In this document: positions 23,787-26,700 of the stretch, one piece after another
Layout: each line of letters starts with the position of its first letter
How positions within the stretch are numbered: position 1 is the stretch's first letter
Source: Bugula neritina
Taxonomy: Eukaryota; Bryozoa; Gymnolaemata; Cheilostomatida; Bugulidae
Length of the DNA stretch: 64,000 nt
Assembly (NCBI GenBank): GCA_964035545.1
Contig: OZ037772.1
Coordinates: 6,530,889-6,594,888 of the forward strand
Direction of reading: 5' to 3'
Notes under the pieces: model-generated
Databases searched by the model: none
What the model was told of the DNA's origin: nothing
What the model saw: the letters and a program-made list of their open reading frames with translations, nothing else
Program-made: the position numbers and the translations under genes

Positions 23787-26700
23787 TTACAAACGTGCTG
23801 CATAAGTAACTAAACTCTGTGGAACAGCCTCTACGTCTGTTACTCCTGAAATTCACAGACAATAAACCTTAAGTCACTATAATTGCTATAATATATATAT
23901 ATATATATATATATATATATATATATATATATATATATTTATAATTATATTAAAATAGCATTATTATGATATTAATTGGTGTTTGATGTTGTAAAATGTT
24001 TGATGTTGTTTATATATATATATATATATATATATATATATATATAGTAAAATGAGTGTTTATAAAACGTTACTAGAGTGCTCTATAGAAATAAATCTAG
24101 AGCGTAAACATTAGAAGAAATAAAATGAGATTTGATTAATATAATGGCATTTATTACTAGTAGTTTCGTACACAAGAACGATGTGCACTCGTCAGATAAA
24201 TATTATTTATCTGACGAGTGCACATCGTTCTTGTGTACGAAACTACTAGTAATAAATGCCATTATATTAATCAAATCTCATTTTATTTCTTCTAATATAT
24301 ATATATATATATATATATATATATATATATATATATATAATGTATGCTGATTGTCAATCTAGTTGGAGTTCCAGCAAAGTAAAGTGCTCGATATCACGGG
24401 TGACAGAGCTAATATAATGTAGTGTGTTCAGATTGTTAATGATACATATATATTTTTTTATATTTAAAAAATCTCACACGACTATATAGTTTCGTACAGT
24501 AAACTGCACTCGTCAGGTGTTAGACTGCAATAATTAAAGTTTGATGCTATTAGAGACGGCTTTATAGACTAAACAGGTCAAGCTGTGGGAGTTGTCAGTC
24601 TTTAAAATGCAACTAAATGCTGAATATACTAATATACCGGGCAATTTAACTGTCTAACACCTGACGAGTGCAGTTTACTGTACGAAACTTTATAGTCGTG
24701 TGAGATTTTTTAAATAACAAAAAAAAAATATATATGTATCATTAACAATCTGAACACACTACATTATATATATATATATATATATATATATATATATATA
24801 TATATATATATAATTATATTGAAATAGCATTATTATGATATTAATTGGTGTTTGATGTTGTTATAAGATGTTGGGAAAACAATTCTTGCCTAATAAGAAT
24901 TACCTTCTCCTTTTGTAAAATTTAATCGAAAAAATTATGTTACGAGTCTTAACAACAATTCGTTAGCCTAAACCCTTGGTACAGCATAACAAGCTGGTGA
25001 TTATAATATTTAATTGGGCAATTTTAAAATGTTACTAAATTTTTTTATTAGTTATTTATTATCGCTTACCATTATTGATTATTGATAGTTATTGTTTTGC
25101 TATTATCAACAATTATTCCTATAAACTGGACCTAATAAACTAAATCTGAAAATAACTTGAAATTTTTGATTTCAAAGTATAAATGAATCGAAATCAATTT
25201 GTCTATAGATAAAATTTTAGTGTTACCTGAAAGTTGCATGGCTAGCTTGAGTTCATTACGTAGAATGGTAAGGACATTTCTGGCACCTTCCTCACCCTGG
25301 TAAAACATTATAGTTTAAAAAGTACTTTAGCATCAGAAAATGCAAATTACATAATTGCATGGTTAAATATGGTAATACTGTTTCCACTAAAACGTGCTGA
25401 GCTTATGATATTTCAACTTGAACAATTATATATTGTAAAATCATTGTTTAAAATCTATAAAAAATAATGGAATTATATCCTCAACAGTTTAAATTAAAAT
25501 TTTGAAGCAAGTTTTTTTATAGCCTGCAGTACTTACGGCTACAGTGAGGCCGTACACTGGAGGTCTACCAACAAACACGGCTCTTGCCCCTAAGGCTAAG
25601 GCTTTCAGTACATCAGTACCAGTTCTGATTCCACCATCTAAATATACTTCTGCTCTACCATTGACTGCCTTCACTACTTCTGACAGGACTGAAATCTGAT
25701 AAAGAAAACAATATAAAGTTTACAAAGCTGTCTCATAATGAATTTTTTTCAGATATTTCAGCTTTTAATTAAAAAAACCCTCATTCAATTCACTAAAGTT
25801 GGTGTGCCTATTTGCATCTACCAATTCTACACTAACGCATTTTATATATCTACAGCTTAATGGGTCAACATCTATAGAAGCATACAAATTGGAAAGGTTT
25901 CATTTCATCTAAATTAAAATGTCTGTTTATACCAAAGACATATATGCTCTTTGGTGAACCAAACTGTCCACTTGCTTCTACAACAATTATGTTATCGTGT
26001 ATAACTTTCAGGATATTTAGTATAATAGCACCAGAGTATTTTAATATTTACTGTAGAAGGAACTCCATCCAACTGTCGTCCACCGTGATTTGATACATAG
26101 ATGGCTTTACATCCTGATTCAAGTGCTTTTACTGCATCAACTCCTATAATATATATATATAATAATTGTATCGAGAGATTTTTAAAAAAACAGCGGATAA
26201 AAAAGTGCTCAAATTATTATGTGTATAATAATGAGCAATTATATTATTGAGGAGAAGAGCAATTTAATTATATAGATGTTGTTTTAATGCACTACTAATA
26301 GTTTCATGCCTCCTCGGCACTCCTTGTGCCTGAGGAGTGCCGAAGAGGCATGAAACTATTAGTAGTGCAATAAAACAACATCTATATATAATCAAATTGC
26401 TCTTTTCCTAAATAATATATATATATATATATATATATATATATATATATATATATATATGTTTATAAATATATATATATATATATATATATATATATAT
26501 ATATATATATATATATATATATATATATATATATATATATATATATATATATATATATATATACATAAATAAGTCAATATCTCGCCTGTCAGAACTCCTT
26601 TAGCAACGATCGGTAGGTCCGTTATAGTTGTAATCCACTGAATATATTCACAAGTTAGAGTAACGTCAAAAATGGAGTCTAAAAAAGCATAATCGCTGCT

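What the first reader, a model, noticed from the sequence alone, without database searches (positions are those of the whole stretch)
24110..24296. A perfect palindrome encodes a hammerhead ribozyme on each strand
The 187-bp palindrome holds CUGACGA, a closing stem II, GAAA, a 3-bp stem III, GUA and a 6-7 bp stem I, read identically on both strands. Either transcript would be predicted to self-cleave. A full-length transcript could also fold into one long hairpin, which would compete with the ribozyme fold. The known background is that type I hammerheads with tiny stem III occur in Penelope-like elements and retrozymes. A fully palindromic, gene-less unit between TA tracts is unusual.
Basis: partly seen in the sequence, partly recalled or inferred. 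Interest (0 to 1): 0.88.

Follow-up and report, generated by a model that had tools for sequence, protein, structure and literature searches.

The report
Palindromic Penelope insertion carrying two hammerheads
The palindrome is real and carries a hammerhead ribozyme motif on each strand, but it is most likely a short by-product of a Penelope-type jumping gene whose insertions look like two copies of the same RNA joined head to head, and this genome holds enough of them to test how such elements insert.

Summary
In detail: 24110-24296 is a perfect palindrome (93-nt arms, 1-nt centre) with a type I hammerhead core on each strand. A full hammerhead-fold test finds 6 sites in the window and none in 200 shuffles, though Rfam's cut-off is missed (28.3 against 34 bits).

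It is not a free-standing ribozyme unit. It is one of 39 exact palindromes of this kind in the genome, with 25 different centres. Each is part of an insertion in (TA)n that nearly always carries a tail (63 nt) at one end only. The same sequence is the untranslated region of a Penelope-like retroelement: 706-aa ORF, predicted GIY-YIG endonuclease fold, tandem pLTR-like repeats.

Three families share the rule of one tailed and one bare end (37 of 39, 13 of 15, 11 of 11). Arms often run to one point at the base of hammerhead stem I, and the two arms carry matching alleles.

Best reading: the element's enzyme primes both cut strands of a TA repeat on two neighbouring start sites of its RNA, and the two cDNAs join head to head. 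Hammerheads on both strands follow from that. The palindrome's own transcript should fold into one long hairpin, so its self-cleavage is doubtful. New variant of a known kind.

The parts
23890..24046 (.). (TA)n tracts (about 23890-23938 and 24010-24046) with a short unrelated stretch between; left flank of insertion A
24047..24109 (-). Insertion A, 63-nt tail (T end); its sense strand is the minus strand; holds a small predicted hairpin; equals the 5' untranslated region of the family A element between its two putative reverse-transcription start sites (ref 593-655)
24110..24201 (-). Insertion A, tail-bearing arm (ref 501-592) with hammerhead core at 24163-24195, predicted cleavage on the minus strand between 24155 and 24154
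24202..24204 (.). Insertion A, junction of the two arms (3-nt filler)
24205..24296 (+). Insertion A, bare arm (ref 501-592) with hammerhead core at 24211-24243, predicted cleavage after 24251; ends straight in (TA)n
24297..24341 (.). (TA)n between insertions A and B
24340..24411 (-). Insertion B (second family), tail (ref 960-1031)
24412..24525 (-). Insertion B, tail-bearing arm, hammerhead core 24489-24516 on minus
24526..24651 (.). Insertion B, 126-nt stretch between the arms; no other copy in the rows of the genome search with B
24652..24769 (+). Insertion B, bare arm, hammerhead core 24661-24688 on plus; ends in (TA)n 24770-24812
26160..26242 (-). Insertion C (third family), tail
26243..26416 (.). 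Insertion C, palindrome; hammerhead core 26330-26356 found on plus only (the other arm lacks the CTGAGGA part at the junction)

Best explanation
The palindrome is a short insertion made by a Penelope-like retroelement (family A). The element's mRNA starts, or is trimmed to, the base of stem I of a type I hammerhead in its 5' untranslated region; about 100 and 165 nt downstream lie two sites at which reverse transcription starts. The element's GIY-YIG endonuclease cuts both strands of a (TA)n repeat; one 3' end primes at the outer site (giving the arm with the tail), the other at the inner site (giving the bare arm). Both cDNAs run towards the RNA 5' end and are joined head to head, often over a few matching bases. 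The product is a palindrome with one tail and a hammerhead on each strand. SHOWN by sequence: the link to the coding element, tail rule, fixed outer ends, clustered inner ends, variable junctions, matching alleles, (TA)n target, hammerhead motif. INFERRED: two-strand priming, the RNA 5' end as the cause of the inner end, the order of steps, and that the ribozyme plays no part in making the palindrome.
Confidence: 0.74

Rival explanations
1. Self-priming: one cDNA (or antisense RNA) folds back on itself and copies itself, as proposed for rotifer Penelope elements. The second arm is then a copy of the first.
For: Proposed from palindromes at inverted junctions in Adineta vaga (PMC3846280, passages seen). 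Explains identical arms and some centres, such as a 3' end CTA annealing to TAG (centres).
Against: A fold-back copy should run through the tail or lack it on both sides; 37 of 39, 13 of 15 and 11 of 11 have it on one side only, in A and B with fixed ends at both sites.
Confidence: 0.15
2. A self-standing palindromic mobile unit (foldback or MITE-like, or an ambisense ribozyme RNA) that replicates as a palindrome.
For: Many near-identical dispersed copies, no ORF of its own, hammerheads on both strands.
Against: 25 centres in 39 copies; the same centre occurs with different source alleles (L012, L021) and the same allele with different centres; the arms are the end of a coding element that also inserts with long, unequal arms (L031, L033, L086).
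Confidence: 0.05
3. Animal retrozyme: tandem hammerhead units spread through circular RNA made by self-cleavage.
For: Same ribozyme type; this genome does have such a family (D: 270-bp tandem units in L060, 314 exact cores in the genome).
Against: Family A copies are head-to-head pairs, not tandem monomers, and no arm seen ends at the ribozyme's cleavage site: 1 of 95 arms is listed at 546-549 and its sequence (L090) reads as a gapped alignment over GCCA.
Confidence: 0.04
4. The hammerhead core is conserved only as part of the element's RNA and is not an active ribozyme.
For: Rfam below cut-off; in PAc the ribozyme cleaves only with the protein and its mutants insert normally (PMC11167929). 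My test for constraint on core and stems was not significant (3 of 18 two-arm alleles against 15 of 47 one-arm events, p 0.18).
Against: Core kept in families A, B and C that differ elsewhere; fold absent from 200 shuffles; a B copy with a paired U-A to C-G change in stem II (L049).
Confidence: 0.3

Closest known systems
Penelope-like elements with GIY-YIG endonuclease: PAc (Poseidon of Anolis carolinensis), PMC11167929, abstract and main text read
   Same: Hammerhead near the 5' end of the element, two adjacent internal start sites bounding a 'tail', AT-rich targets, both strands cut and extended, uncleaved RNA inserted, tandem pLTR-ORF-pLTR.
   Different: Here the putative start sites lie upstream of the ATG, in the 5' UTR, not inside the ORF; targets are (TA)n tracts; the main text does not describe palindromic insertions with one tail each (supplement not seen).
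Adineta vaga Penelope families, PMC3846280, passages read
   Same: Inverted pLTRs, optional tail on one of them, palindromes at the inverted junction.
   Different: Self-priming was proposed there; single-copy or low-copy elements in the passages seen; 'hammerhead' has 0 occurrences in its text.
Hammerheads of Penelope-like elements (Cervera and de la Pena 2014)
   Same: Type I hammerhead of a minimal kind in Penelope-like elements.
   Different: Paper not held; known here only from its citation in PMC7229834 and recall. The inverted arrangement with one motif per strand is my observation here.
Metazoan retrozymes, PMC7229834, passages read
   Same: Type I hammerhead, small non-coding dispersed unit.
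   Different: Retrozymes are direct tandem units of about 300 bp; family A palindromes are inverted pairs. Family D at window 31622-31890 fits the retrozyme description instead.

Membership tests
Penelope-like element (as derivative) | Full-length relative in the genome with one ORF ending in a GIY-YIG endonuclease | tested here: met
Penelope-like element (as derivative) | Penelope-type reverse transcriptase domain | tested here: inconclusive
   No Pfam RT hit, poor model; YRDD and FDIVEFYPSI motifs named from recall
Penelope-like element (as derivative) | pLTR-like repeats in tandem or inverted | tested here: met
   Tandem unit with 921 bp identical in L098; inverted arms in A, B and C
Penelope-like element (as derivative) | Tail on one end | tested here: met
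Penelope-like element (as derivative) | AT-rich target | tested here: met
   71 of 74 family A tail occurrences matched in the fetched loci (overlapping loci included) run into (TA)n; the other 3, at 2 places, are tail-ORF junctions
Type I hammerhead ribozyme (RF00163) | Conserved core and three helices | tested here: met
   6 sites in the window, none in 200 shuffles
Type I hammerhead ribozyme (RF00163) | Score at or above Rfam gathering score 34 | tested here: not met
   28.3 bits in A, 16.2 in C
Type I hammerhead ribozyme (RF00163) | Self-cleavage | not testable with these tools
   needs RNA
Metazoan retrozyme | Hammerhead units in direct tandem | tested here: not met
   Short family A and C copies examined are head-to-head pairs or, in a few A loci, single arms; short tandem units seen only in family D
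Foldback or MITE DNA transposon | Symmetric terminal inverted repeats | tested here: not met
   One-sided tail in 37 of 39
Foldback or MITE DNA transposon | Target-site duplication of fixed length | not testable with these tools
   Both sides are (TA)n, so a duplication cannot be read

The most novel reading that the evidence does not exclude
Penelope-like retroelements insert by an asymmetric two-ended priming reaction: each event uses both target strands and, almost always, one of each of two neighbouring start sites on the RNA, so that the inverted, one-tailed dimer is the normal product rather than an accident. Short palindromes are then the products that started on the 5' untranslated region of the mRNA and ran off its end, and they record that the inserted RNA had not been cut by its own hammerhead.
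Probability: 0.55. Interest if true: 0.74.

Novelty: new variant of a known kind. Interest (0 to 1): 0.58.

Why it matters
How Penelope-like elements insert is an open question: the published in vitro work leaves the later steps unvalidated (PMC11167929) and the rotifer work proposed self-priming and asked for further experiments (PMC3846280). Here dozens of short insertions in three families show one rule (one tail, one bare end, arms matched, junction variable), which favours two-ended priming and gives simple predictions. It also explains ribozymes on both strands without an ambisense RNA, and indicates that in the insertions seen the RNA was used uncleaved. In the papers held I found no statement of this rule; searches.

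Tried and rejected
Stand-alone palindromic mobile unit: rejected because centres vary (25 in 39) and the arms belong to a coding element. Snap-back copying: kept as a rival, but it does not give one tail. HHR-cleaved RNA as template: no arm seen supports it; a genome-wide pattern search for palindromes centred on the cleavage site did not complete, so this rests on 95 arms only. Constraint on ribozyme positions in source alleles: my hand reading looked suggestive, the full count was not significant (p 0.18). RF00163 over the whole genome found nothing, but rang in 0 of 14 control genomes too, so it says nothing. Rfam on 18.5 kb of loci listed no hammerhead, presumably because of its filters, yet found it in a 101-base piece of one of them. 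Rfam found no hammerhead for family D. AlphaFold of the RT-EN stretch was too poor and its Foldseek list meaningless; Foldseek with the endonuclease model alone had no significant hit, only the second look did. Host species not identified and not pursued. Faulty script outputs not used: the 'HHR +' flag (wrong expression, False in all rows); the (TA) flag on tail sides (first-match error; one search replaces it); one search lacks family A because of a length limit (one search covers it). Rows dropped: the 39 family A pairs are only those with both outer ends at the fixed sites and at least 90% identity; L034, L035, L036, L038, L081, L087 and one element of L033 fell out. Of these L038, L081 and L087 read by eye as one tail and one bare end, L035 has a damaged tail, L036 one bare end and one unrecognisable end, L034 a bare arm that stops at 557 in non-TA sequence. 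One search scored 36 of 38 as one-tailed, the two others being L035 and L036. Position 76: 38 of 38, 47 of 50 with the added loci; the discordant ones are L105, L110 and L113, with damage next to the site visible in L105 and L110. Family B: two of the 15 pairs are loose (arms 562 nt apart in L051, 199 nt in L069); without them it is 11 of 13.

Full report
OBSERVATION. Window 24110-24296 is a palindrome of two 93-nt arms around one base. Each strand carries CTGACGA-stem II-GAAAC. A script that demands stem I of at least 4, stem II of at least 3 and stem III of at least 3 pairs, CUGANGA, GAAA and NUH finds 6 sites in the window (24211+, 24195-, 24661+, 24516-, 26330+, 31668-) and none in 200 dinucleotide shuffles. 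Rfam Hammerhead_1 gives 28.3 bits on both strands, below the gathering score of 34.

ANATOMY. Alignment of 25 unique copies shows that the inserted unit is (TA)n, 63-nt tail, arm, centre, arm, (TA)n. The tail is on one side only. The window holds three such insertions of three families: A (24047-24296), B (24340-24769, 126 nt of other sequence between the arms) and C (26160-26416). In C the fold test finds a hammerhead on the plus strand only.

COPIES. The genome has 215.8 Mb in 295 contigs. A DNA search with A gave 82 rows, by my count at 41 places (only the best 40 candidates of 216 were scored). An exact pattern for two arms within 30 bases found 39 palindromes, reversed control 0. I hold the sequence around all 39.

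TWO FIXED OUTER ENDS. In coordinates of the element's 3' part, family A arms end outside at 592 (bare) or 655 (tail), family B arms at 959 or 1031. In the 39 palindromes found by their centre alone, 37 have one of each; one has a tail and a bare end 29 nt further in (in L033), one has no tail and an arm cut inside the hammerhead (L103). Of the family A pairs that the script recognises by these ends, 39 of 39 are one of each (many of these loci were found with the tail in the query, and odd-ended elements drop out; see Tried and rejected). Family B: 14 of 16 pairs listed, of which one counts an arm of L058 twice, so 13 of 15; L049 and L054 have two tails. No recognised pair was bare at both fixed sites, but the B loci were found with the tail in the query. 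For family C I fetched the ten best further places; with the window copy 11 of 11 have exactly one tail, and there the query held no tail.

INNER ENDS. 40 of 95 family A arms end within ref 488-493; 36 stop short of it, 1 ends at 482, and 18 run further upstream, some into the coding region; 5 of these 18 are cut by the end of the fetched stretch and the longest, in L031, reaches the limit of the reference used. Of 34 short pairs 27 have at least one arm at the cluster and 11 have both. In the predicted fold of the sense RNA from this point, AUAGUGGC at the 5' end pairs with GCCAUUAU beyond the cleavage site, so the cluster is the base of an extended stem I. The shortest B pairs end at 840-852 and C arms at or near AUUGUGC, also at stem I by my reading. 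Upstream of the A cluster lies an AT-rich, TATA-like stretch and TCA at the presumed start; some copies have an insertion there, so a promoter is only a guess.

JUNCTIONS AND ALLELES. The 39 palindromes have 25 different centres. Of the 39 pairs, 27 join with 1 or more overlapping bases, 1 is blunt, 11 have filler (BLAST-defined, no chance control). At arm position 76 the two arms agree in 47 of 50 elements (25 T/T, 22 C/C). At a stem I site 17 are A/A and 4 T/T with no mixture in 21 readable of 39; the 4 T/T copies have four different centres. Identical centres also occur with both alleles of position 76 (L012 with T, L021 with C). So the arms look made together, from one source, and joined anew.

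MECHANISM. Two separate cDNAs, one from each start site, joined head to head, explain the one-tail rule, the matched arms and the variable centre at once. PAc is known to cut and extend both strands and to start at two adjacent internal sites that bound the tail (PMC11167929). Fold-back self-priming (PMC3846280) explains matched arms but not one tail. What is not shown: the RNA 5' end, strand usage, and why one of each site is used.

RIBOZYME. Of 95 arms none ends at the cleavage position except one listing that its sequence explains otherwise (L090), so the RNA seems to have been inserted uncleaved, as in PAc. The inserted palindrome's own transcript folds as one hairpin (-157.6 kcal/mol). 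I found no significant sign of selection on the ribozyme.

NOVELTY. Element type, tail, inverted pLTRs and hammerheads are known. The short palindromes as a regular class and the one-tail rule in three families I did not find in the held papers; most subscription papers are not held.

Noticed in passing
window 31622-31890 (-), and L060 2135-2871: A further type I hammerhead (core 31644-31668, stem I 6 bp, GUC cleavage triplet) in a non-palindromic unit bordered by (TA)n; elsewhere it forms 270-bp tandem units (2.7 copies in L060) and the genome has 314 exact cores, reversed control 0. It fits the metazoan retrozyme description and is missed by Rfam here.
   Followed up: partly
window 24526-24651: 126 nt between the two arms of insertion B with no other copy among the rows of the genome search with B; possibly captured or filler DNA.
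   Followed up: no
window 23896-23992 and 24765-24861: A stretch behind (TA)n occurs twice, 98% alike over 97 nt including the TA tract, on either side of insertions A and B.
   Followed up: no
L049 and L054: Two family B insertions carry a tail at both ends, exceptions to the one-tail rule.
   Followed up: partly
L042 2093-3070 (-) and L058 2888-3184 (-): A different open frame with a YIDD motif (L042) and a QTYVGETGRRLSHR stretch that looks like another RT plus GIY-YIG lineage; no Pfam hit for the L042 frame. Motifs named from recall.
   Followed up: no
window 9802-10147 and 38525-38869: Two copies of an element with 71-nt inverted ends 94-97% complementary and about 204 nt between them, looks like an ordinary short DNA transposon.
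   Followed up: no
L049 1194-1309: A near-perfect hairpin that scores about 70 bits against miRNA families, below their cut-offs, probably another foldback repeat.
   Followed up: no
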